From the IMG/VR virus record IMGVR_UViG_3300007515_000035, positions 1 through 26,378 of that record: a stretch of DNA of 26,378 nt, one strand, 5' to 3'. The translations under genes and the position numbers were made by a program. The stretch is from a virus. Positions 11,571-26,378 of this stretch are shown here, in pieces (within the stretch, counting starts at the first letter, position 1; the number at the start of each line of letters is the position of its first letter). Below the pieces are notes generated by a model. That model saw only the letters and a program-made list of their open reading frames with translations, was not told the DNA's origin and made no database searches.

Positions 11571-13387
11571 TGGCGATAGTTGATCGAGGTCGAATGGTGG
11601 ATGGCATTACGTCCCTCTCAGGGGGGATGGATAGTGGCCGCTCGCCATCGACCATCGGGCGCAACCAGTGCGCGTACTCGCAGAACGTGACCTTCCGTGG
11701 TGGCTACGCCAAGACCCGACCGGGATTCAAGCGCATTTCATTAGCGACTGGCTCGGCCACCACTGCCCTCACGACCAACCGCTTTCAGGGGGCCGGTTAC
11801 TTTGACTATAGTGACGGTCAACTGGTGGCGGTGGTCGCAGGGAGGACTTACACGCTGACTCCCCCAAGCACCGGGACAGACTGGGCGGTAAGCGACATCA
11901 CCTACAACGACGGCAGCAGCGACACCACGATGAGTGTGAGCCGGGAGCGGGTTCACATGGTACAGGCCGAGCAGTACCTCATAGTTCAAGACGGTAGCAC
12001 GGCTCCGTTTATTTGGGACGGCAGCAGCAGTCGTCATGCGAGCAGCAGTGCTAACGAGGTGCCGGTTGGCACTGGCCCGATGGCCTACGGGCAGGGCCGG
12101 TTATGGGTGGCGCAGGGCCGAAACTTCATTGCCGGTGACATTGTGGGCGGCAGCAACGGGGTTCTGAAGTTCACGGAAAACAATTATCTGGCTGGCGGCG
12201 GTGCGTTCACTGTTCCGACCGCCAGCGGAAACATTACGGCGATGCGATTCGTAGCCTCACCGAACACGGCGATGGGGCAGGGCGAACTGATGGTGATGAC
12301 CAGTGACGCGGCCTATAGCGTGGTGGTTCCAGCGGATCGTTATGACTGGTTTGCAGTGAGCGACCCGCAGCAACGGGTGGTGTTGATTCATAACGGGGCG
12401 ATGGGCCATTTCAGCACAGAACTGGTTAACGGCGATATTTATATGCGGAGCCGTGACGGGGTGCGGTCTATCATACAGGCTGTTCGTGACTTCCAAAGCC
12501 TTGGGAATACTCCCATGAGCCGAGAGATGCACCGGATCATTAAGTATGATGAACCGAAATATCTTCAGTACACCAGCGGTGTTCTATTCGACAACCGCTA
12601 CCTGCTGACGGCGCAGAGCAGCCACAACAGCAGCACTGGAATTGGCTACAAGGGGTTGATGGCACTGGACTTTGATTTAATCAGCGGGTTAAGCGGCAAC
12701 GCGCCACCTGCCTATGACGGATTCTGGACGCTAGATATTACTCGCGGCAGCACCACGCATAACATGGAGTTCCTGCAACTGGTTAAAGGTAGGTTTGATG
12801 GCGTGGAACGATGCTTTGCCTTTGTTCGCAACGCCGACGGAGATACAGAGATATGGGAACTAACCAATGAAGGCGACGAGATTGAGGACATCGACGGGAC
12901 TACCGAGTATAAGATTACATCTGAACTGGAGACTCCCTCCTTTGACTTCGGGACTGCCGGTGCGGCGAAGGTGCTGGAGAGCGGCGATTTGTGGATGGAT
13001 CAAGTGACCGGCGGCACAGTCACCTTCCATGCGGACTTTCATCCTGACCAGTACCCCTGCTGGATTAGCTGGCAGGACTGGAGCGTGATTGCTGAGTACC
13101 AAGCCTCGGACTGCGAGAGTCTAGTAGACTACCAGAAGCAGTACCGCCCACGGATGCGACTAGGTAAGCCTTCGCAGTCGGAGGAACCGGCCACGGGCAA
13201 GCCGTTCAATTACGGATGGGAATTTGCGGCGCGTCTCAAGTGGACGGGACACGCACGGGTGAAGTTATTTCGGCTGAACGCAAGGGAGACACAGGAAGAA
13301 CCTTACGCCAACGTCGATATGGACAGCACCTCCAAGGCGATTGCGTGTGACTGCCTCAGTGGTGTATCGTCAACAACAAATCAATAG
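11570..13387 (+). CDS. Tail nozzle-like protein (T7 gp12-type)
   Basis: This 605-aa protein has its start codon overlapping the protease stop (TAATG). The N-terminus (SLSGGMDSGRSPSTIGRNQC followed by AYSQNVTFRGGYAKTRPGF) matches a pattern I associate with podovirus tail-tube proteins in which GG(M)xxxRxPxxxxxNQxAxxxNVxxRGG opens the chain. The body is beta-rich with many short strands and turns (SGDLWMDQVTGG, TVTFHADFHP), as expected of a propeller-like nozzle. The C-terminus ends in FAARLKWTGHARVKLFRLNA. T7 gp12 has 794 residues, so this is shorter but in range. It would form the distal tail tube below the adaptor encoded at 14142-15110. No catalytic motif is seen. Assignment is by pattern memory and position, not by a decisive domain. 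Confidence 0.6.
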   Translation: MAIVDRGRMVDGITSLSGGMDSGRSPSTIGRNQCAYSQNVTFRGGYAKTRPGFKRISLATGSATTALTTNRFQGAGYFDYSDGQLVAVVAGRTYTLTPPSTGTDWAVSDITYNDGSSDTTMSVSRERVHMVQAEQYLIVQDGSTAPFIWDGSSSRHASSSANEVPVGTGPMAYGQGRLWVAQGRNFIAGDIVGGSNGVLKFTENNYLAGGGAFTVPTASGNITAMRFVASPNTAMGQGELMVMTSDAAYSVVVPADRYDWFAVSDPQQRVVLIHNGAMGHFSTELVNGDIYMRSRDGVRSIIQAVRDFQSLGNTPMSREMHRIIKYDEPKYLQYTSGVLFDNRYLLTAQSSHNSSTGIGYKGLMALDFDLISGLSGNAPPAYDGFWTLDITRGSTTHNMEFLQLVKGRFDGVERCFAFVRNADGDTEIWELTNEGDEIEDIDGTTEYKITSELETPSFDFGTAGAAKVLESGDLWMDQVTGGTVTFHADFHPDQYPCWISWQDWSVIAEYQASDCESLVDYQKQYRPRMRLGKPSQSEEPATGKPFNYGWEFAARLKWTGHARVKLFRLNARETQEEPYANVDMDSTSKAIACDCLSGVSSTTNQ

Positions 13388-16159: not shown

Positions 16160-18292
16160 ATGGCACTTGGAAACATTTCATTAAGCGATATGCCGTGGCT
16201 GGGCAAACCGGCTGATCCGGCTGAATCTTTTGCTAGAGGCATGGCGCAGGGACAAAGTTTTGCCTCGCGGAAGCAGGACGCTGCGGCGAAACAGCAAGGG
16301 ATGGAGGCGAGGCAGCAAGCGATGAGTCAAAGTGCAGATATGCACCCGCTGAAGATGGCGGATATGGCGAGCAACACGGCGTATCGGGATGCGATCACGG
16401 ACTACAACGTAAGCTCAAAAGACGCAAGGATTGAGGGCATCAATCTAGTGAATCGCGCCCGTGAACTGCAAAACAATTACAACGATCAAACGATGGAAGA
16501 TCGTGTAAACCTTATGGATTTGAGAGTTAGGCAGGGCGAGGATGACCTTGAGCATTTCCGCAAGCTGCGCCCACTGCAACGCGAAGCGCAGTCGCTGATG
16601 AACACGGCAAGGGGTTACGATATTTCTAGGGCTGCGATTCAGCAGACTGAGGCGGCTCAATCCCTAGCATCACAAGCCAGAGATCAAGAGAAGTATCAAA
16701 GTGAGCAGGGCGCAGTGACTGAACAACTCACCCTATTGCAAGACCTTACCGAAGAACAACTGGCCAACTATGTGCCGCCGGTTTCCATTACGCACCCAGC
16801 GCAGCGAGCCAAGCTAACTCGGTATGTGGCTGAACGGCGCGGGACGAAGCAGTATGGGGATTATACTTTTGGTGCAACGCAGGAACGCCTCAATGAAACA
16901 GCTAGAAACAATCAATACCGCAAGGAAGATGTCGCGCTGGGCCAAGCCTACACCGGCATATTGAATATCCGCGATCCACAAAGTGGGTTGTACTTGCTCC
17001 GCGAAAACAATGGAGAACTAACCCATGCTGGATACCAGTTGCGCCAAGAGATGATAAAGTCTAAACCGCTATGGGATCAGCTTACACCCGCCGAGCAGCG
17101 CGAGATTCGTGAGAACAGGCACGGCAGCATCTACAAGCCTTCCGCTGGGGCTACGTCTCACGGGCGATACTTTAGCGACTACAATGGACAAACCATCCTG
17201 AACCCGGACGGGCGCGAGGTTGCCAAGCAGATGCTTCAGCGGCGTGCCGCAGCAGTTAAGGCGGCAAAGGTGGATGAAGCTGCTGACTTTGGCTTGATAC
17301 CGCGTTCCCAAAAGGATGGCAAACTTGAGTTCATGGCTGATCCGTATCAGGAAAAACGAGCAGTTCGTTTGCATGAGATAGCGAAACAACGCATCGACCT
17401 CGGCCATGCACCTAATAAGGCGTATGAATATGCTCTATCCGCAGTGGGGATGGAAGATGTAGCGATTCTTTCCCCGTTCATCAATGAACAGCAAGCCAGA
17501 GAACTTGGCGTTAGCGAGGGGCAACGTGTTTTCGGGCAAGACGCCAATAGTGGTGAATGGAAGTTTGCCACTGTGAGGAATGGTAAATTATTGTTTGATG
17601 CTGCCAGTGGCTCATCACGCAACACGGGCGCGAACACGGGTGATCCAGCTAACTTTACTGGCGATCAAACAAACGCCCGCCACGGTAATGAGGGAGAAAT
17701 AAATCCGTTCACTGGGCAGCCCAACCCTCCGGGGGGGCCAGCCGAGCATGAGGTGCTAAATAACGCCCAAGCACTTCATAAGAGAATGAACGCACAGGGG
17801 GCCAGCTTGAGATTAAGGCAGCAAATTATTCGTATCTCCACAGACCCCGTTAATGGCTTGGGCTGGAATGCGGATGACAGTGAGGACGCAATGGCGGATG
17901 ATGTGATGGAAAAATCTATTGATGCCATCGAGGAATATCAGGACGCCATCTTCGACATCACTGGTGAGACGAGGGAGTACGGCTTCAAAACGAACCGTTT
18001 CACGGAGTACAGTGTGAACCAGTTTGCTGCCGAGCTAGTTAATAAGCCAATCGAAAACTGGCCAGACCGGCTATGGTACAAGAGTGAAACCGGCGACACC
18101 AAGACGCAATCATATACCGATTTGCCAAAGTCTTTAGGGGATAAGAAAAAATTGCTTGCCTACCTAACACGACACAGGGACTGGGTTGCCCTACGCAACC
18201 GGATGGGCGAAGAGATGAAGGGGCATAAGGGCGTTCAAAGTAAATGGAAGGCCGCGCAATCGTTGTATTCCAGAGAATCTAAAAATAAATAA
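16160..18292 (+). CDS. Putative internal virion protein (T7 gp15-like position)
   Basis: This 710-aa protein starts at ATG 16160 behind AAGGATTAATAAT. It is strongly helical, Gln/Arg/Glu/Ala-rich and has several likely coiled-coil parts in residues 30-240 (ASRKQDAAAKQQGMEARQQA; TEAAQSLASQARDQEKYQSE). No signal peptide or membrane segment is evident. A low-complexity link (SGSSRNTGANTGDPANFTGD; NPPGGPAEHE) at about residues 490-535 divides it from a C-terminal helical domain. T7 gp15, the middle core protein ejected into the periplasm, has 747 residues, close to this length. The gene precedes the giant gp16-like gene. No sequence motif proves the family; size, helix content and order are the evidence. 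Confidence 0.5.
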   Translation: MALGNISLSDMPWLGKPADPAESFARGMAQGQSFASRKQDAAAKQQGMEARQQAMSQSADMHPLKMADMASNTAYRDAITDYNVSSKDARIEGINLVNRARELQNNYNDQTMEDRVNLMDLRVRQGEDDLEHFRKLRPLQREAQSLMNTARGYDISRAAIQQTEAAQSLASQARDQEKYQSEQGAVTEQLTLLQDLTEEQLANYVPPVSITHPAQRAKLTRYVAERRGTKQYGDYTFGATQERLNETARNNQYRKEDVALGQAYTGILNIRDPQSGLYLLRENNGELTHAGYQLRQEMIKSKPLWDQLTPAEQREIRENRHGSIYKPSAGATSHGRYFSDYNGQTILNPDGREVAKQMLQRRAAAVKAAKVDEAADFGLIPRSQKDGKLEFMADPYQEKRAVRLHEIAKQRIDLGHAPNKAYEYALSAVGMEDVAILSPFINEQQARELGVSEGQRVFGQDANSGEWKFATVRNGKLLFDAASGSSRNTGANTGDPANFTGDQTNARHGNEGEINPFTGQPNPPGGPAEHEVLNNAQALHKRMNAQGASLRLRQQIIRISTDPVNGLGWNADDSEDAMADDVMEKSIDAIEEYQDAIFDITGETREYGFKTNRFTEYSVNQFAAELVNKPIENWPDRLWYKSETGDTKTQSYTDLPKSLGDKKKLLAYLTRHRDWVALRNRMGEEMKGHKGVQSKWKAAQSLYSRESKNK

Positions 18293-18325: not shown

Positions 18326-21300
18326 ATGCCTTCCCCAGCCGATAAAGTCATTGCGGAACTAGACACCCTTCCTGACCCGATGGCGGACTTGTCGCCCGCT
18401 GATCGGGTGTTGGCTGAGAAAGGGCTTTATTTAGATTATGACACTCCCGCCCCGCGCCAAGCCTACCACTACGATGAGGCCAATGATACGGGATTGATCG
18501 GTGAAATGTATGGCCGGTTCACTAGGGATGCGGCAGGGGCAGCAGCCTCACTGCCAGAACTATTAGGAACTTGGGCGTTTAACCTTGAACGCAAGCTACA
18601 GCTGGGCGGTGGCTTCAAGGAGTTGGAAACTCCAGAAGATACTTTCCTGCACGGGATTGTCGGCAAGAGCATACGCGATGCGGCAGATTACATAACCCCA
18701 ACGCCCAGTGTGCGGTATCGGGATCACTGGCTGGCAGACTTTGCCGGTGGCGTGGGCACAGTGGGCGGGTATCTAGTTGGATCAAAGGGTGCTGGGGCGG
18801 GAGCGCGGTCAGCGTTGGGTGGCTCAAAGGCAATCGCGGCGCGTCATGCGGCGAAGGTGGCTCAATCTCCAGCAATCTCAAAAGCTGGGCTGGGATACCG
18901 AATCACACCCGCGCAAGCTGCTGCGGCCAACCAGTCCGCAGTGGCGCAAGGGGTGGCCAAGACGATGCACCGAACGGCGTTGGCGGGCGGTGCAGCACAA
19001 GGCATGGCGATGTCTGGCATGGAGGGTTGGAACGATGCATACCTAACCCTGCTGGCCAAGGCCAAGGCCGAGGGGCGAGACAAGCTGACCGAAGAGGAAC
19101 TGGATCAGGCATGGTTGAGCATGGCCCACAATATGCCCGCCGGTTTAACGGAAAGTTTAGGCGCAACGGCTATGGCGGCAAGGTTATTTAGCCGCATTGA
19201 TCGGAGTACCAAGGGGGCATGGGGCCGAGGCTGGCGGCACATTACCAAGACGACCGCGCAGGGCGCACTCACCGAGGCAGCGCAGGAATCTTTCCAGACG
19301 GCATGGCTGAACCTTGGCGCAGCACACGTTGCAAAGTATCAAGAAGATCGAGACGCATTTGAGAATCTGATGCACTCGGCTACCTTGGGCGCGAGTGTGG
19401 GTGGTTTCTTTGGGCTACTGGTTGGGGTAGTGGGCCGCAAGGGGCGGCTGCAACAGCAGATCACCGATCTCGAAAACTCTGAGCAACGGCTGCGGGAGTC
19501 TGGCAATGATTCCACAGCGGATGTGGTGGCGCGGCAAGCAGAGCGGATGCGGCAACAATTAGCGGAGGGCACAGAGCCAGACGCTGCCGAAGCACTAGAT
19601 GCCGAGCGCGAAGCGCATGAAGCAGAGGCGGCAGAGGCGGGGATTGATTTATCGGACGCCTTCCCAGTGGTTCAAGAGGCCGAAGGGGAAACGGATTCAG
19701 CCGTGGAAACCGCTCTGGCTGGTGACACACGCACGGTCGAACCAGTTGCTGAACCGATAACCGATCCGATTGCTGGCCCGATTGCTGACCCAATGGATGA
19801 TTTTGCCGAGGCGGCTGATGCGGAACTGGACGCACTTGAGGATGCCGAGGCAACAACTGAGACGGCGAGTGAAGTAGCGGCAGAAGAGGACGCGAAGGCT
19901 ACCCAACCCAAGCGCAAACCGATGACGCCAGAACAACGCAGACGGCAGGAGCAGGGGCCGGATGTTTTGGATTGGATTGAGGACACCGGCAGTCCGATCC
20001 CGGTTCCGCCGCGCAGTGTTCGCGTCAAGGGTGGCGGGCGGCGACCGGGCAAGCTGGCCACAGGGCACGCGCACGACCAGATTGAATCCACCTTGGGGGT
20101 TAAAGACCCCGGCAAGTCCAAGTGGGGCACACGGGTTCAGGACGGCAAGGGCAATCTTGACCAAGTGGTTGACCTTTACAATCGGCAACACGGTACTGAA
20201 CTGGACGAGGATGGATTCCTAGATTTAGTGAGCGAAGCGATCACGCGCCGCCGCAACTTTTCCGCTGAAAGCAAAGCGCGACGGGAGCAGCAGGAAACGG
20301 ATATTCAGTTTGAGCAGGAGATACGGGAGGGTGACGGGCCAGCAGCCAAGGACACCATACCCACACAGGAGCTAGTGGTTGGCGATGAGTTCACCTTGAA
20401 CGGCGAAAAGTTTGAGGTGGTGGGTTTTGACCCGGACACGGACACCATCACGGTGCAGGATGGGCGCAAGTTTGGGCGGCAACAACTGCGCGATGAAGGC
20501 GTGGTGAAGGTGGACAAGGGTTCGCTGGAGAGTGACGGCGAAGTGGACGGCATCGGCGCGGACTGGGATGCGGCATTGCCAGACGCACAAGCGCAACAGG
20601 AAGCCCAAGAGGAAACCCAAGAGGCCGCGCAGGGAGAAGCTGAAACCACTGCCGAAACGGAAGTAGGCGGTGTCCGTTTCATCAATGGTGGAGTAGACAT
20701 GGACTCCGACTTGGTTGCCTTGGTGCAGGACAAGGTGAGCAAGGGCATGGCCAAGGCCATGAATAAGCTGGGGCTATCTGAGGGCGCAATGCACATTGAG
20801 TTACGCCCCGGCGGCGATCCCAATACCAGTGGCATCTTTGCTGAACCGGATGAGGCTGGGAATCTTGATAAGATTGTTATCCATCCTGAAGTGTTCGGGG
20901 CACATTTGCAGCGCATCAAGGCATTGAATGTGCCGTTCATTCTGAACGAAGAAATCTTTCACCAGATACAGAACCGCGCCATCCATAAGGAGTGGTTAGA
21001 GTCTGGCCAAACGGTTCCATTCCTTGAGTTCCGCCAGCAATACCTTCGCAACGTGGAAGCGGAGATGGACGCGGACGAAAAGAAGCGCATCGAACTGGTT
21101 TACATGGGGCAAGCGAAGATGGATGGCGTGGCGATGAAGCCGGAATCCATTGTCATGGAAGGCACGCGGATGGCGTTTCAAGGCAAATTGTTTGGGGCCA
21201 TTACTGAGGCCACGGCAGGGGTGCGCCCGAAACTCACGGCGTTCATCGAATTATTGGTGCGCTATATTCGCGGCATCGGGCCGAGCAAGGCGTTGCAAGC

Positions 21301-24300
21301 GGAACTTGATAAGGCGGTGAAGGTGTTGGGGCAGATGCGGAAGGCACAGAAGGCGGCGGATGGCAGGGCACAAAGGAAACAGAAAGCCAAGGCCGCTCCC
21401 GAAGCTGCACCGGCAACGGATTACACAGCTGAACAGGAAGCGGCGATTGAGGAGGCTATCAATAAGGCGGTTAACAGCGTGGCTGCTGATCCGCAGATGC
21501 GGGATGATTTGAAGGGGCCAGCCGCCGAACGAGTGGCCAAGGATTTGCGCGAAGGCAAAGTGGATGTGGATAAGCCCGCGCAGTTATTTAACTCGGCCAA
21601 GGCTGGGGCAGTGGATGCAATCCGCAAAAGCACCGCGCAGAAGCGGGGCGGCGGCGCAGTGGATGCTTCACTGGAAGCGGAGAGCGACGAAGGCACGACA
21701 CTGGGCGAGCGCACGGAGGATGCGACTGCCGAGGGCGCAGACATGGGCGCACGGCGCAGCGTGTTGCGGGAGCAGTTGGGCGAAGTGTTCGACCAGTTGA
21801 CGGCAGAGGAGCAGCAGGTGTTGGAGGTGGCAGCGGAAGGGGCAAGCACCCGTGAAGGAGCCAAGCGCATTGGGGTGAAGAGCGCACAAACCTATAGCGC
21901 ACGCTTGCGGGCGGCACAAGCAAAGGCGCAGGATTTACTGGCGGACAAAGACATTACGGGGGCGCAGGACTTTGCCGCTGCGCCGGAGGGGGAAGGGGTT
22001 GACGCCGATGTTAAGCTGGACAAACAGATCATACGGGAGAATTTAGAGAAAGGATTATACAATGCCGAAGTCTTACCTGAACGAATCGCACAGGAAATTA
22101 GTGGAAGCGGGGAGGGAAGCACAATCCTCGCAGCCGAGAATGTCGCACGAAGAAGTCACCGATCAATACAACAAGATCATGAAGAGTTCGCGGACGGGCC
22201 AAGGGGAACCGCAATCTCAGCCGCGCAATCAATCGGAAAGCAAGCCCGCCCGCTAGAGGATGCAGCATTGGCAGAGTGGGCCGAGCAGCAAGGAATACTT
22301 TACAGCGATGCCAACAAGAAAGAGTTCATTGACGAGTGGGGCACGCAGGGCGAGCGAGGAGGGGTTGAGTCCATTGTTATATTTAATGATGACACCCAGC
22401 GGTGGACAAAGATTAACAATCTTTTAATGCATTCCAGCCAAACCGAATTTCTGCATCGGTTGGCAATTCACAACTACCTGTTCCCCAACGAATCCTACAA
22501 GCTGGAAGGATACGTTTGGCAGGATAATAAATCGTGGAGATCAGACACTCCACTGGGGGTGATGACTGATGGCGGCAAGCCGCAGTTGCTTCCCGTTATA
22601 TCGCAACCGAATGTTAAGCACGTTGGGGATGAGGTAAGTATTCTTGAATCCACTGCTGTACTGGAGGCACTGGGAGGCAAGTGGGACAGCGTTGAGGGTG
22701 GGTTCGTGTTTGAGGATGGCGGGTTCTTAATCGGTGACGCGCATGAAGAAAATGTTTTGCGCCGCGAGAACGACAGCCTTGCGTTCATCGACACTGACAT
22801 TCGACTTTTACTCAGCCAAAAGAATGACCGGCTGAGAGCATTCGCAGAGGGAGAGAGTGAGGTGGAAGGTGACGCCGCCCCTGCCCCGGATTCAGACTTC
22901 GAGACGGACACTGACCCAACTTCCGAGCAGGAACAGATGGTGTTGGGTTTGAAGGATGGCGAAGAGGCAATCCCGCCAGACATTAACGTGCCCGTTTGGG
23001 AGAAGTTCAAGGCATTGATGCGCGGTGAGTGGAGCGGGACGGACAAGCTGCGCCGTGTGGGGCTAGGCGGTCTGGCTGATCGTATCGAATTGTACGAGGC
23101 CAAGCGCGGCGAGTTCAGCGGTAAGTTGCTGGAGACGATGCGGCAATGGGCCAAGCCTTTGAGCCGAGAGCAGATTGTGGAAGCGCATCGGGAGGCGTTG
23201 GAATACTTTGCAGTGCGGGAAGATTACGGCGGCAGCTTGGAGTCGAACACGCTGCGCCGCAAGTTGGAAGAGGCCAAACGGGATCGGGACAAGGCGCGGC
23301 GGAAGCGGGATGAGAGTGACGCCGCCCAACGGGACGCCCTTGATCCGACTGAACTAGAGGCACGGCAACAGGCGGTGGCGGATGCTGACGCCAAGGTGCA
23401 AAGGCTCAAGCGTGAACTGGATCAGCGCGTGGCTCAAGAGCAGCGGGATGCGGAGTCTAGGGCTAACGCTGTACTTGCAGAGTTAAGCGATACCGCAACG
23501 GACTTGGTGCGGATCATGGGCGATACCTCTGAGCAGACGGGTGCAATGGCGGACAGCCTCGGCATCAAGGTTCAGCTACCCAATGGCGCGTGGCGCAGGA
23601 TGGTGAACTTGGGCCGCAAACATTTCCCTCGCGTGTTCAGTGATGAAGTGGTTGACGCTATCAATAATCCGGCCAAGTTTCCTGAGTTGTACGCCAAGTT
23701 GCAGGGCGCACTGGTGGATGGCGGCTACGCACTGGATGCGAAAGAGGCGGAAAAGATGCTGCTGGATATGCAGCACGAGGGCGAGATGGCCGGGGCTTCA
23801 TTCCTTGCCAATGCCGAAATGGCGCGTGGCATGAGGCTCCCCGCTGAGTTCTATTCCACCAGCCCTGACACCTACTTTAATTTTGTGAACCGTTTCGCTG
23901 ATCGGGCGGCACAGATTCATGCGTTCGGCCAAAGCACCAACACCAGCAATGATGCCTTTGACACGGCCCTGAAGGCGTCCAAGCGCAGCGATCAAGAGAC
24001 ACGGGATTTCATAAAGCTGGTGCGCGGTGCGGTGTATCGCATTCGGCCCAAGGGTAATAATAAATTTTACCAACGATTGCAGACTTTTACTACGGGCGGA
24101 TTCCTGAGTGGCCCATTTACTGCCATCCGCGATGTGGCCAGTGGCGTGGCCTTGAGTGCGGAAACCTTTGGCGCACTGAACACGGCCCGCGCCATGTGGC
24201 AAACCTTTGGCGGGCACACCAAGGCGGCAGGGCGCAACCTGTTGCGGATTAAGGACGGCGATTTCAAGTGGTATCAGTTCCAGAACTTTGAAAGCTCTCC

Positions 24301-25675
24301 AGATATTGAGGCGGCATTAAGGCTGGGCGCAGTGCGCGAAGATTTCGTTGAAGCAATGCTGCTGGACGAGCGAATCAATGATCCTAACGCCACTGATAAG
24401 TTGTTATTGGAGGGAACCAACAAGGCGTTGGCCTTCAAGCGAAGCATGGACAGCCTCGCCCGCGTCACCACACTGGTTGCCAGTGTGCATTGGCTGCGTA
24501 CCACGCAATCCTTGAGCCGCAACAACCCGGAGGGACGCCGATTCAAGCAGCGCGTGGCAGCATTGAAACGGCTGGGCATTAAGGGTGACGCCGTGGCTGG
24601 GTTGTTGGCTGGGGATGTGAAGGCCGAGGAAGATTTCGCCCGCAAAGCGGTGGCCGAAAAGCAATACACTTACAGCATCACCCAACACCCACTGTTCCTT
24701 GCCTCACCGGATAGCACGACAAAGATTTTCTTCCAGTTCCAACGCTGGACATTCCAACGCGGACGCGACCTGTTAAAGAACGTGATCCTTCCCGCCACGC
24801 ACGGCACGAAAGTGGGCGGGGAACGGGTGCGCGACTTTGCCCCTGTGCTGCGCTTCGCAGCAGCGGCAGCATTGACCGGCGAGTTGCTTTCCCTGCTCCG
24901 CGAATGGTTGACGGATAAGGAGCGGCGCGAGGCACTGAATGAAGAGATCGCCAACGCCGATGACACCAAGGCTGCGCTCATTGTGGATCGGGTATGGAAA
25001 GATATGGTGATGAGTGGCGGACTGGGCTTGCTCGGCGACTACGGCACAATGGCTTACGAGTTAACGGATCGTGGGCCACGCTGGCGCGATCCGTTGGCCC
25101 CGCCCGCCGTGAATCTGCTGAAACAATTGCGCGACACTGTGACCAGCATCGCACAACAGGGATTAAACGGAGACGCAGCGGTGCGTGAGCTTGGCAAATG
25201 GATTAACACCCTGCCGCCGGTCAATCAGCTTTACGGATTTAGCAAGGGCATGACGCGCCGCGTTATGCCTGACCTTGTGCCGGTTCATGCCGCCACACGC
25301 GACCGCAACTTTGTGCGGACACTGGCCCGCCGCTTTGGCGAGGAACACGACCTTGATGTTGAAGGCAGCGGCGGCAGCTTTGCCAAGGATGAGTTTACGG
25401 AACAAAAGAAGCAGCTTGAAGAAGCTTTACTGACTGGTGACATTGCCGAGGCGCGGGAGATTAAGCAGAGTTTGCTGGATGACGGCATGGAATTGACTGC
25501 CATCCGCAGCAGTGTGCGGATGCGTCACCCGATCCGCATCGGGATGGTGACGAAGCCAGAGTTAAGGCGCAAGTTCATGCGCTGGGCAAAGCAGCGTGTG
25601 CCCAGCAGTGTTGAGCGCATTGAGCGCACACAAAAAACCTACGAGCTTACGGCCCGTAGGTTGGGGTTATTTTAG
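18326..25675 (+). CDS. Giant polyvalent ejection-type virion protein with sigma-like and kinase-like modules
   Basis: This 2449-aa protein is the last gene of the virion operon, in T7 gp16 position (gp16 has 1318 residues). The N-terminal ~370 residues contain Gly/Ala membrane-like segments (for example 353-370) and an LTEAAQESFQ motif common in polyvalent phage proteins. An acidic linker follows. Residues ~682-735 (VVGDEFTLNGEKFEVVGFD...KFGRQQL) form a small beta domain. Residues 860-900 hold EEIFHQ (875-880), a metallopeptidase-like motif lacking the first zinc His. Residues 1032-1205 resemble a sigma-70/ECF factor. Residues 1310-1500 resemble a kinase (Lys1362, GDAHEEN 1470-1476, IDTD 1488-1491). 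Residues 1643-1720 are coiled coil. The C-terminal ~700 residues are helical with FFQFQRWTFQRGRD (2135 on) and a hydrophobic stretch at 2176-2195. No clear ribosome site precedes ATG 18326. Ejection is inferred from order and membrane segments. Confidence 0.8.
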   Translation: MPSPADKVIAELDTLPDPMADLSPADRVLAEKGLYLDYDTPAPRQAYHYDEANDTGLIGEMYGRFTRDAAGAAASLPELLGTWAFNLERKLQLGGGFKELETPEDTFLHGIVGKSIRDAADYITPTPSVRYRDHWLADFAGGVGTVGGYLVGSKGAGAGARSALGGSKAIAARHAAKVAQSPAISKAGLGYRITPAQAAAANQSAVAQGVAKTMHRTALAGGAAQGMAMSGMEGWNDAYLTLLAKAKAEGRDKLTEEELDQAWLSMAHNMPAGLTESLGATAMAARLFSRIDRSTKGAWGRGWRHITKTTAQGALTEAAQESFQTAWLNLGAAHVAKYQEDRDAFENLMHSATLGASVGGFFGLLVGVVGRKGRLQQQITDLENSEQRLRESGNDSTADVVARQAERMRQQLAEGTEPDAAEALDAEREAHEAEAAEAGIDLSDAFPVVQEAEGETDSAVETALAGDTRTVEPVAEPITDPIAGPIADPMDDFAEAADAELDALEDAEATTETASEVAAEEDAKATQPKRKPMTPEQRRRQEQGPDVLDWIEDTGSPIPVPPRSVRVKGGGRRPGKLATGHAHDQIESTLGVKDPGKSKWGTRVQDGKGNLDQVVDLYNRQHGTELDEDGFLDLVSEAITRRRNFSAESKARREQQETDIQFEQEIREGDGPAAKDTIPTQELVVGDEFTLNGEKFEVVGFDPDTDTITVQDGRKFGRQQLRDEGVVKVDKGSLESDGEVDGIGADWDAALPDAQAQQEAQEETQEAAQGEAETTAETEVGGVRFINGGVDMDSDLVALVQDKVSKGMAKAMNKLGLSEGAMHIELRPGGDPNTSGIFAEPDEAGNLDKIVIHPEVFGAHLQRIKALNVPFILNEEIFHQIQNRAIHKEWLESGQTVPFLEFRQQYLRNVEAEMDADEKKRIELVYMGQAKMDGVAMKPESIVMEGTRMAFQGKLFGAITEATAGVRPKLTAFIELLVRYIRGIGPSKALQAELDKAVKVLGQMRKAQKAADGRAQRKQKAKAAPEAAPATDYTAEQEAAIEEAINKAVNSVAADPQMRDDLKGPAAERVAKDLREGKVDVDKPAQLFNSAKAGAVDAIRKSTAQKRGGGAVDASLEAESDEGTTLGERTEDATAEGADMGARRSVLREQLGEVFDQLTAEEQQVLEVAAEGASTREGAKRIGVKSAQTYSARLRAAQAKAQDLLADKDITGAQDFAAAPEGEGVDADVKLDKQIIRENLEKGLYNAEVLPERIAQEISGSGEGSTILAAENVARRSHRSIQQDHEEFADGPRGTAISAAQSIGKQARPLEDAALAEWAEQQGILYSDANKKEFIDEWGTQGERGGVESIVIFNDDTQRWTKINNLLMHSSQTEFLHRLAIHNYLFPNESYKLEGYVWQDNKSWRSDTPLGVMTDGGKPQLLPVISQPNVKHVGDEVSILESTAVLEALGGKWDSVEGGFVFEDGGFLIGDAHEENVLRRENDSLAFIDTDIRLLLSQKNDRLRAFAEGESEVEGDAAPAPDSDFETDTDPTSEQEQMVLGLKDGEEAIPPDINVPVWEKFKALMRGEWSGTDKLRRVGLGGLADRIELYEAKRGEFSGKLLETMRQWAKPLSREQIVEAHREALEYFAVREDYGGSLESNTLRRKLEEAKRDRDKARRKRDESDAAQRDALDPTELEARQQAVADADAKVQRLKRELDQRVAQEQRDAESRANAVLAELSDTATDLVRIMGDTSEQTGAMADSLGIKVQLPNGAWRRMVNLGRKHFPRVFSDEVVDAINNPAKFPELYAKLQGALVDGGYALDAKEAEKMLLDMQHEGEMAGASFLANAEMARGMRLPAEFYSTSPDTYFNFVNRFADRAAQIHAFGQSTNTSNDAFDTALKASKRSDQETRDFIKLVRGAVYRIRPKGNNKFYQRLQTFTTGGFLSGPFTAIRDVASGVALSAETFGALNTARAMWQTFGGHTKAAGRNLLRIKDGDFKWYQFQNFESSPDIEAALRLGAVREDFVEAMLLDERINDPNATDKLLLEGTNKALAFKRSMDSLARVTTLVASVHWLRTTQSLSRNNPEGRRFKQRVAALKRLGIKGDAVAGLLAGDVKAEEDFARKAVAEKQYTYSITQHPLFLASPDSTTKIFFQFQRWTFQRGRDLLKNVILPATHGTKVGGERVRDFAPVLRFAAAAALTGELLSLLREWLTDKERREALNEEIANADDTKAALIVDRVWKDMVMSGGLGLLGDYGTMAYELTDRGPRWRDPLAPPAVNLLKQLRDTVTSIAQQGLNGDAAVRELGKWINTLPPVNQLYGFSKGMTRRVMPDLVPVHAATRDRNFVRTLARRFGEEHDLDVEGSGGSFAKDEFTEQKKQLEEALLTGDIAEAREIKQSLLDDGMELTAIRSSVRMRHPIRIGMVTKPELRRKFMRWAKQRVPSSVERIERTQKTYELTARRLGLF
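21419..21940 (+). other. Sigma-70/ECF-like module inside the giant virion protein
   Basis: Residues 1032-1205 follow the layout of a small sigma factor. Part one (to about 1105) has helices with DDLKGPAAERVAKDL and FNSAKAGAVDAIRKS, which align by pattern with region 2 (DLVQ-EVFLRAW; FRAWLFRIARNLAIDLLRR). A linker follows with DEGTTLGERTED (1121-1132), like the DxxTLGDxxED stretch of sigma-70 proteins. Part two (1146-1205) is region-4-like: QLTAEEQQVLEVAAEGAST, then REGAKRIGVKSAQTYSARLR with helix-turn-helix spacing intact. The order and spacing of all three blocks argue against a chance helix-turn-helix. Confidence 0.65.
22062..22256 (+). CDS. Candidate nested 64-aa ORF with strong ribosome site
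   Basis: Within the giant gene, in a different plus frame, ATG 22062 follows AGAAAGGA with 7 bases spacing, a better ribosome site than that of the giant gene itself. It encodes 64 aa (MPKSYLNESHRKLVEAGREA, SQPRMSHEEVTDQYNKIMKS, then a Gln/Ser/Arg-rich tail). The HEEV helix recalls the C-terminal part of some antitoxins, but this is only a resemblance. It lies exactly in the low-complexity linker between the sigma-like and kinase-like modules. It may be a real overlapping gene, a relic of a fusion event, or chance. Confidence 0.25.
   Translation: MPKSYLNESHRKLVEAGREAQSSQPRMSHEEVTDQYNKIMKSSRTGQGEPQSQPRNQSESKPAR
22253..22822 (+). other. Protein-kinase-like module inside the giant virion protein
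   Basis: Residues 1310-1499 show kinase hallmarks in order: LEDAALAEWAEQQGILYSD at the front; GGVESIVIFN followed by Lys1362 in RWTKINN (beta-3 lysine position); EFLHRLAIHNYLFP; LEGYVW (hinge-like); then IGDAHEENVL (Asp1471, Asn1476) as catalytic loop and FIDTDIRLLL (Asp1489) as metal-binding strand. The GDxHxxN...IDxD form is that of phosphotransferase-type kinases and the Ser/Thr kinase-like domains reported in phage polyvalent proteins. Whether it phosphorylates protein is unknown. Confidence 0.6.
25636..25662 (-). terminator. Rho-independent terminator for the minus-strand genes, inside the virion gene end
   Basis: AACCTACG (25636-25643) and CGTAGGTT (25655-25662) form a perfect 8-bp stem with an 11-base loop. 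Read on the minus strand, the stem is followed directly by a T run (complement of A 25632-25635 and neighbours). This is the form of an intrinsic terminator for the two genes at 25677-26341. It lies within the last codons of the 2449-aa gene. On the plus strand the hairpin is followed by GGGGTTATTTT, a poorer tail that may act weakly. Confidence 0.75.
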
Positions 25676-26341: not shown

Positions 26342-26378
26342 AACTGTTCCCTATTCGTTAAACTTTGTTGGCTTGCTC

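What the first reader, a model, noticed from the sequence alone, without database searches (positions are those of the whole stretch)
21419..21940. Sigma-factor-like module built into a virion ejection-type protein
Residues 1032-1205 of the 2449-aa protein show region-2-like helices (FNSAKAGAVDAIRKS), a DEGTTLGERTED linker and a region-4-like helix-turn-helix (QLTAEEQQVLEV...REGAKRIGVKS...SARLR) in the right order and spacing. Phages encode sigma factors as separate early or middle genes, and N4 ejects a whole RNA polymerase. A sigma factor carried inside an ejected core protein would redirect host RNA polymerase as DNA enters. I know of no described case, though I cannot search.
Basis: partly seen in the sequence, partly recalled or inferred. 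Interest (0 to 1): 0.9.

Follow-up and report, generated by a model that had tools for sequence, protein, structure and literature searches.

The report
Sigma-factor domain inside giant phage protein
A giant phage protein that is probably injected into the host cell together with the phage DNA carries a built-in module related to bacterial sigma factors, the parts of the transcription machinery that tell RNA polymerase where to start, which suggests that the phage may bring its own transcription switch with it.

Summary
Residues 1030-1212 of the 2449-aa protein (window 21413-21961) form a sigma-70-type module. NCBIfam sigma70-ECF aligns along almost its whole length (E 1.9e-7, though under its curated cut-off); Pfam Sigma70_ECF passes its cut-off for the isolated module. 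AlphaFold models of this module and of one relative give two helical domains and a floppy linker, and their best Foldseek matches in the PDB are sigma factors.

Relatives found through the terminase reveal giant proteins of 2449-3687 residues with exchangeable middle cargo. Three of the seven that I read carry the module in the same slot, after a zincin-like and before a kinase-like part; for two of them sigma hits are independent. Over seven related contigs TIGR02937 rings only at two of these modules.

Best reading: a new cargo domain of a phage 'polyvalent' protein, a sigma factor delivered with the DNA to steer host RNA polymerase. Identity is well supported. Virion delivery is inferred from gene position and polyvalent domains. 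Promoter use is not shown: repeated elements before early-type genes occur in two module-bearing phages but also in one without a detected module. The papers searched gave no such case.

The parts
18326..25675 (+). 2449-aa giant protein, last gene of the plus-strand tail/unknown-gene run; N- and C-terminal parts shared with relatives, middle variable
18473..19615 (+). conserved N-terminal region (about residues 50-430) with a glycine-rich hydrophobic stretch near residue 349, ejection-protein-like (inference)
   Evidence: blastp to relatives, alignment, hydropathy
20609..21412 (+). zincin-like region (about residues 762-1029), motif EEIFH at residues 875-879 where canonical zincins have HExxH
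   Evidence: aligned with relatives d and e, motif scan; by motif and position only, no Pfam peptidase hit
21413..21961 (+). sigma-70-type module, residues 1030-1212
21416..21646 (+). region-2-like helical domain (module residues 2-78)
   Evidence: model; T4 gp55 aligned at rmsd 2.1 over 70 residues; TIGR02937 from module residue 13; no PDB sequence hit for this half alone
21647..21724 (+). linker resembling sigma region 3.2 (module residues 79-104), low model confidence but six letters invariant in three modules
21725..21955 (+). region-4-like helix-turn-helix domain (module residues 105-181)
22256..22807 (+). Kinase-PolyVal domain (residues 1311-1494)
   Evidence: Pfam E 9e-16, 58.7 bits against 27
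22997..25672 (+). conserved C-terminal region (about residues 1558-2449)
16160..18292 (+). 710-aa protein directly upstream, no family match; same position as the 'structural lysozyme' gene before the giant gene of Pseudomonas phage AF
26345..26378 (-). part of one copy of the repeated element TGAGCAA-N10-TTTAACGAATA before a small ORF; link to the sigma module not shown

Best explanation
The 2449-aa product is a phage polyvalent protein: conserved ends (probably for packaging and ejection) frame exchangeable effector domains. One effector is a two-domain sigma factor (region 2, region-3.2-like linker, region 4), followed by a kinase. Shown: the module's family resemblance in sequence and predicted fold, its place, and modules of the same kind in two relatives. 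Inferred: the protein travels in the virion, enters the cell with the DNA, and the sigma part, tethered or released by proteolysis, binds host core RNA polymerase and directs it to phage promoters before any phage gene has been expressed. For a phage in which I saw no polymerase gene it would do what the N4 virion polymerase does for N4.
For: Window module: TIGR02937 1.9e-7 over nearly its whole length; Sigma70_ECF over cut-off for the isolated module. Relative e (L035), 23% identical to it, hits sigma models on its own: 9 of 10 NCBIfam rows are sigma factors, best 8.7e-5, none over its curated cut-off, and 12 of 12 PDB rows at E up to 1 are sigma factors, best 0.068. Joint profile of the three modules: 41 of 43 PDB rows at E up to 1 are sigma factors, best SigA 2.3e-6. 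Fold: for the window module Foldseek ranks 1-30 are sigma chains as I read the titles; for e all 50 rows shown of 209 (same three-row alignment, so not fully independent). Region 4 aligns at 1.1-3.0 A over 56-67 residues to sigma region 4, region 2 with T4 gp55 at 2.1 A over 70. The module sits in one slot in a, d and e; d and e align through it at 34% over 614 aa. hhalign of d+e against the window module is collinear over module residues 11-142, pairwise E 5.2e-5, probability 67%. TIGR02937 over seven contigs matches only at the modules of G002 and G013, so no separate sigma gene was seen. Kinase-PolyVal in the same chain, ART-PolyVal in relative c. Position at the end of the tail-gene run, like the 2213-aa gene of podovirus AF. 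PMC5512222 lists the N4 virion polymerase among polyvalent domains and names starting transcription as the phages' primary challenge (passages and sections).
Against: No virion proteomics and no isolate. For the window module alone the best PDB sequence hit is a response regulator, and 2 of 9 rows are sigma factors; LuxR-type and UPF0122 helix-turn-helices fit region 4 with Z tied to sigma factors. Region 2 alone has no PDB sequence hit. Scores are under the cut-off for the whole protein in Pfam and for all NCBIfam models. The sigma models also ring at E up to 1 in all 14 control genomes, archaea included (over cut-off in 9 and 10), so the under-cut-off G013 match (14.6 bits, starting about 38 residues before my module border) is weak by itself. 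A profile of d+e does not find the window module in hmmsearch, and with d+e alone only three PDB rows appear, all SigA, best 0.15. d has no sigma hit of its own. Foldseek E-values are modest (6e-4 and 1.4e-2), TM-scores low, and VIA Z (8-11) is in the range where helical bundles can match by arrangement. Four of the seven giant proteins show no module. Repeated upstream elements are not confined to module-bearing phages.
Confidence: 0.58

Rival explanations
1. Sigma mimic or decoy: the module binds host core polymerase, a host sigma or an anti-sigma factor but starts no transcription. It shuts down or retunes host genes, in the way the sigma-like domain of PhyR titrates NepR (recalled) or as phage polymerase inhibitors do.
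For: Region 2 is the most diverged part; no promoter motif could be tied to the module. That PhyR holds a sigma factor domain is in the start of the abstract of PMC5830050 (listing). The neighbouring kinase also points to host-directed effectors.
Against: The region-3.2-like linker, of use mainly inside an initiating holoenzyme (general knowledge), holds six of the 18 letters invariant in the three modules though it is modelled with low confidence. Both ends of a sigma factor are kept.
Confidence: 0.2
2. A DNA-binding relic: a former sigma gene captured into the giant protein and kept only as a DNA-binding or spacer part.
For: Low identity between modules (20-35%); hits under curated NCBIfam cut-offs; other helix-turn-helix families fit region 4 about as well.
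Against: Region 2, linker and the start of region 4 stay collinear between diverged phages, with conserved linker letters.
Confidence: 0.12
3. The giant protein is not injected but acts late, inside the producing cell, for example as a late sigma factor or in assembly.
For: Its gene lies in the structural run and would be expressed late; no virion data were found for this group.
Against: Polyvalent kinase and ART cargo, the zincin-like part and the position shared with the giant gene of podovirus AF fit delivery better; a late sigma factor would not need to sit inside a chain of 2449-3687 residues.
Confidence: 0.07
4. Chance resemblance of an alanine- and glutamate-rich helical stretch to sigma profiles.
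For: The stretch is compositionally biased (bias 29.6 bits); sigma models ring weakly in archaeal control genomes too.
Against: Sigma hits from two modules only 23% identical, region order, fold matches, and no other TIGR02937 match in seven related contigs.
Confidence: 0.03

Closest known systems
Phage polyvalent proteins (Iyer et al. 2017, PMC5512222: abstract, sections 10 and 33 and found passages read)
   Same: Large late-gene chain with disparate effector domains, Kinase-PolyVal here and ART-PolyVal in relative c, zincin-like region, predicted delivery with the DNA
   Different: The word sigma does not occur in that paper's main text, though it mentions unspecified 'other HTH domains'; a sigma factor as cargo is not described in what I read
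N4 virion RNA polymerase
   Same: Transcription function built into a giant ejected protein so that early genes can be read at once (logic only)
   Different: N4 injects a whole single-subunit polymerase; here only a sigma-type module, which would need host core enzyme; no T7-type polymerase found in seven contigs (whose controls did not ring)
T4 gp55 and other phage sigma factors
   Same: Sigma-70-type region 2 fold (7d7c); use of host core enzyme (inferred)
   Different: Separate genes made after infection (general knowledge), not a domain of a virion-type protein
ECF and group 1 sigma factors
   Same: Two-domain layout of ECF factors; linker resembling region 3.2 of SigA/RpoD (region names recalled)
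   Different: Fused within a 2449-aa phage protein; below NCBIfam's curated cut-offs
Pseudomonas phage AF gp16 (AF_016, 2213 aa)
   Same: Giant gene directly after a 700-aa 'structural lysozyme' gene in a podovirus
   Different: No detectable sequence relation at the ends and no module found with my profiles

Membership tests
Sigma-70 family | Region 4 helix-turn-helix | tested here: met
   Sigma70_ECF 7.1e-6, over its 21.1 bits, Sigma70_r4_2 0.02 below cut-off; 1.1-3.0 A over 56-67 residues to sigma region 4, with LuxR-type domains close behind
Sigma-70 family | Region 2 (core-binding and -10-reading helices) | tested here: inconclusive
   TIGR02937 aligned from position 11 and gp55 at 2.1 A over 70, but no PDB sequence hit for this half alone
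Sigma-70 family | Region 3.2 linker of primary sigma factors | tested here: met
   Three-module profile to SigA 264-353, E 2.3e-6; six invariant letters in the linker; d+e alone only 0.15
Sigma-70 family | NCBIfam curated score for the superfamily (TIGR02937, 42.9 bits) | tested here: not met
   30.9 bits for the module, 30.3 in the contig search
Sigma-70 family | Binds core RNA polymerase and starts transcription at defined promoters | not testable with these tools
   Needs biochemistry; a repeated upstream element was found but not tied to the module
Phage polyvalent proteins | Several unlike effector domains in one large chain | tested here: met
   Kinase-PolyVal 58.7 bits against 27 plus sigma module; ART-PolyVal 39.7 bits against 31.2 in relative c
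Phage polyvalent proteins | Zincin-like metallopeptidase domain with HExxH | tested here: inconclusive
   EExxH in a-e in place of HExxH, canonical HExxH in f and g and twice elsewhere in e; no Pfam peptidase hit in the window protein
Phage polyvalent proteins | Late-gene context next to virion genes | tested here: met
   Follows tail-spike, tail-type and unknown genes on one strand
Phage polyvalent proteins | Delivered into the host with the DNA | not testable with these tools
   Needs virion proteomics and infection tests
N4-type virion RNA polymerase | T7-type single-subunit RNA polymerase domain | tested here: inconclusive
   PF00940: 0 of 7 contigs, but no control genome rang; no such hit in the protein

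The most novel reading that the evidence does not exclude
The phage packages a sigma factor as one domain of a giant ejected protein; it is set free at recurring boundary peptides (seen in relatives d and e as [FYW]A[FY][DN]P[LM]) and, together with the injected kinase, reprogrammes host RNA polymerase for phage promoters such as the bipartite elements before the early-type gene cluster, at the moment of DNA entry and without any prior phage gene expression.
Probability: 0.35. Interest if true: 0.88.

Novelty: new variant of a known kind. Interest (0 to 1): 0.74.

Why it matters
How a phage without its own polymerase gets its first genes read in a hostile cell is a central step of infection. 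A sigma factor shipped inside the particle would be a further solution beside relying on host promoters and injecting a polymerase. It would also add transcription initiation through host polymerase to the effector activities of polyvalent proteins, and it gives a small, 183-aa, directly testable module.

Tried and rejected
Close relatives by protein search in the phage collection: none for the whole protein, the module, the 745-aa protein, the e module or the d C-terminus. Genome contigs: nothing with the C-terminal or the terminase alignment. The module alignments A3 and A7 found in viral contigs only phages already known. AF giant protein as a homologue: not supported.

Promoter link: sigma-70-type promoter-like sites are not enriched in the two early-strand stretches, rather fewer (2 against 3.7, sd 1.8; 2 against 6.7, sd 2.1). 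A repeated element was found before four ORFs of G002 (17 dyads in 3 or more of 14 intergenic stretches against none in 60 shuffles) and another before six ORFs of G013. But relative g (G011), without a detected module, has a palindromic repeat in the same place (21 pairs over the shuffle maximum); c has one pair barely over its shuffles, d none in 3.5 kb, b none in 1.1 kb, f was not examined. I therefore do not use these elements as evidence. Part of the G013 element can pair with itself (by eye), so it may be an RNA element.

Homology of the window module to the d/e modules: hmmsearch failed; hhalign gave moderate support up to the start of region 4. The high A3 scores for a, d and e are circular and not used. 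A3 hit an L041 ORF at 0.0069 (6.8 bits), and the d+e profile hit g at 0.00046 (8.3 bits), in databases of a few sequences: taken as noise.

Kinase in d and e: by alignment only; Pfam gives no Kinase-PolyVal hit there, only RIO1 0.12 and PK_Tyr_Ser-Thr 0.093 in e. f, g and the window's zincin-like piece alone were not scanned against Pfam.

Odds: on re-check the best explanation was lowered from 0.60 to 0.58, because (response regulators matching about as well) had been left out, and the rivals were set so that the odds add up to one.

Full report
What is there. The window is a 26,378-base virus record. The ORF 18326-25675 encodes 2449 aa and closes a run of plus-strand genes that includes a 909-aa and a 1253-aa protein of tail-spike/tail-fibre type, tail-fibre-type proteins and several unknowns. 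Two other IMG/VR contigs carry the same protein at 100% identity, one of 43,690 bases. That contig also has a terminase, an integrase-type protein, DnaB-type helicase, single-strand-binding protein, exonuclease, replication initiator and an ArdC-type antirestriction protein. I saw no RNA polymerase, but not every small ORF was scanned and the polymerase search had no ringing control.

The module. Pfam finds Kinase-PolyVal at residues 1311-1494 and Sigma70_ECF at 1095-1203; the sigma hit is just under the cut-off in the whole protein and over it in the isolated stretch. NCBIfam TIGR02937 aligns module residues 13-174 with 11-163 of its 165 positions, E 1.9e-7, below the curated cut-off. Against that, a single-sequence search of PDB chains puts a response regulator first (0.024) and SigA second (0.06), with 2 of 9 rows sigma factors, and the region-2 half alone finds nothing.

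Relatives. Two terminase searches led to eleven other contigs, several of them fragments. Seven giant proteins could be read: a (window), b (3201 aa, L017), c (2863 aa, L018), d (2583 aa, L034), e (3687 aa, L035), f (3275 aa read, L038, cut by the fetched piece) and g (3235 aa stop to stop, L042). In a-e parts of the N-terminal 450 or so and the C-terminal 750 or so residues are related. f and g share the N-terminal pattern in my alignment but do not match the C-terminal profiles. The middle differs: c has ART-PolyVal, a the kinase, e two extra HExxH motifs.

The module in relatives. By eye, then by alignment, d (residues 808-1016) and e (886-1066) carry a similar module in the same slot. e alone hits sigma models (9 of 10 NCBIfam rows) and sigma chains (12 of 12 PDB rows at E up to 1, best 0.068). 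d has no sigma hit of its own and rests on 35% identity to e. TIGR02937 over seven contigs matches only G002 at 6.8e-9 and G013 at 3.2e-4, at the modules, both under the cut-off; PF07638 over twelve records matched only G002, over its cut-off. Both models ring at E up to 1 in all 14 control genomes, so weak rings alone mean little. Thus 3 of 7 giant proteins have the module, two shown independently; the other four are 'not detected', not proven absent. Direct comparison of d+e with a: hmmsearch negative, hhalign collinear over module residues 11-142, pairwise E 5.2e-5, probability 67%.

Fold. AlphaFold2 on alignments of the same three modules gives mean pLDDT 73 and 74, pTM 0.41 and 0.39, with two confident helical parts and an undetermined linker. 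Foldseek against the PDB: for the window module rank 1 is an ECF SigL complex at 6e-4, the only row under 0.001, and ranks 1-30 are sigma chains as I read titles and chain letters; some unrelated proteins and LuxR-type regulators appear among ranks 31-50. For e the best is 1.4e-2 and all 50 rows shown of 209 are sigma chains as I read them. VIA-align Z is 8-11, a level at which helical bundles may match by arrangement alone, and a LuxR-type helix-turn-helix reaches Z 7.8. The weight therefore lies on the consistency of the family named and on the sequence hits.

Function. The linker keeps six of the eighteen letters invariant in the three modules and is what aligns with SigA. That this part of SigA is region 3.2, which acts near the polymerase active site during initiation, is general knowledge; it favours a working sigma over a mere DNA binder. 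Delivery is inferred. Iyer et al. (PMC5512222; abstract, sections 10 and 33 and passages) describe injected polyvalent proteins, name the N4 virion polymerase among their domains, state that establishing transcription is the phages' primary challenge, mention unspecified 'other HTH domains', and do not use the word sigma in the main text.

Promoters. In G002 a bipartite element TGAGCAA-N10-TTTAACGAATA stands directly before four ORFs next to the giant gene's 3' end; G013 has another element before its own cluster. But g has palindromic repeats there without a detected module. No link is claimed.

Novelty. Full-text searches for sigma factors together with polyvalent proteins, virion or ejection proteins, packaged or injected sigma factors, and virion polymerase listed no report that I recognised of a sigma factor within a virion protein. 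I judged them by listing (20 of 35 papers shown), apart from passages of PMC7824862, PMC3974807 and PMC5512222. The library lacks most subscription papers. I therefore call it a new variant of a known kind: a new cargo domain of polyvalent proteins.

Noticed in passing
L034 giant protein residues 1020, 1372, 1680; L035 giant protein residues 1070, 1401, 1710, 2083, 2777: A peptide [FYW]A[FY][DN]P[LM] recurs 3 and 5 times at what look like borders between cargo domains, including right after the sigma module and after the kinase-like part (shuffled means 0.002 and 0.004). Possible processing sites or linkers; not matched in the window protein.
   Followed up: partly
L018 giant protein residues 1262, 1496, 1974: LRSGT recurs three times in the middle of relative c, perhaps the same role with another sequence.
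   Followed up: no
G002 + 24234, 25503, 26017, 26885 (last copy partly at window 26345-26378, - strand): Bipartite element TGAGCAA-N10-TTTAACGAATA-rGGAACA (up to 2 mismatches) ending 2-3 bases before the start codon of four small ORFs.
   Followed up: partly
L045 10433, 10797, 11071, 11485, 11813, 13340 (+): Another repeated element, AGGGCCA ... ACCTACGACATA, before small ORFs of G013; its first part can form a hairpin with changes on both sides (by eye).
   Followed up: partly
end of L041 and start of L042 (G011): Repeated palindrome CTTAAGACgagtGTCTTAAG before several small genes.
   Followed up: no
L006 about 11880-11920, next to the integrase-type gene 12075-13292: Sequence like the 3' end of a tRNA gene ending in CCA (by eye), a likely phage attachment site, so the phage is probably temperate.
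   Followed up: no
G002 24134-24214: A 27-base unit is repeated three times in tandem just before the first copy of the bipartite element (by eye; also seen in the hairpin rows).
   Followed up: no
window protein residues 875-879; relatives b-g: The zincin-like motif is EExxH in a-e but canonical HExxH in f and g; whether a-e are active peptidases is open.
   Followed up: partly
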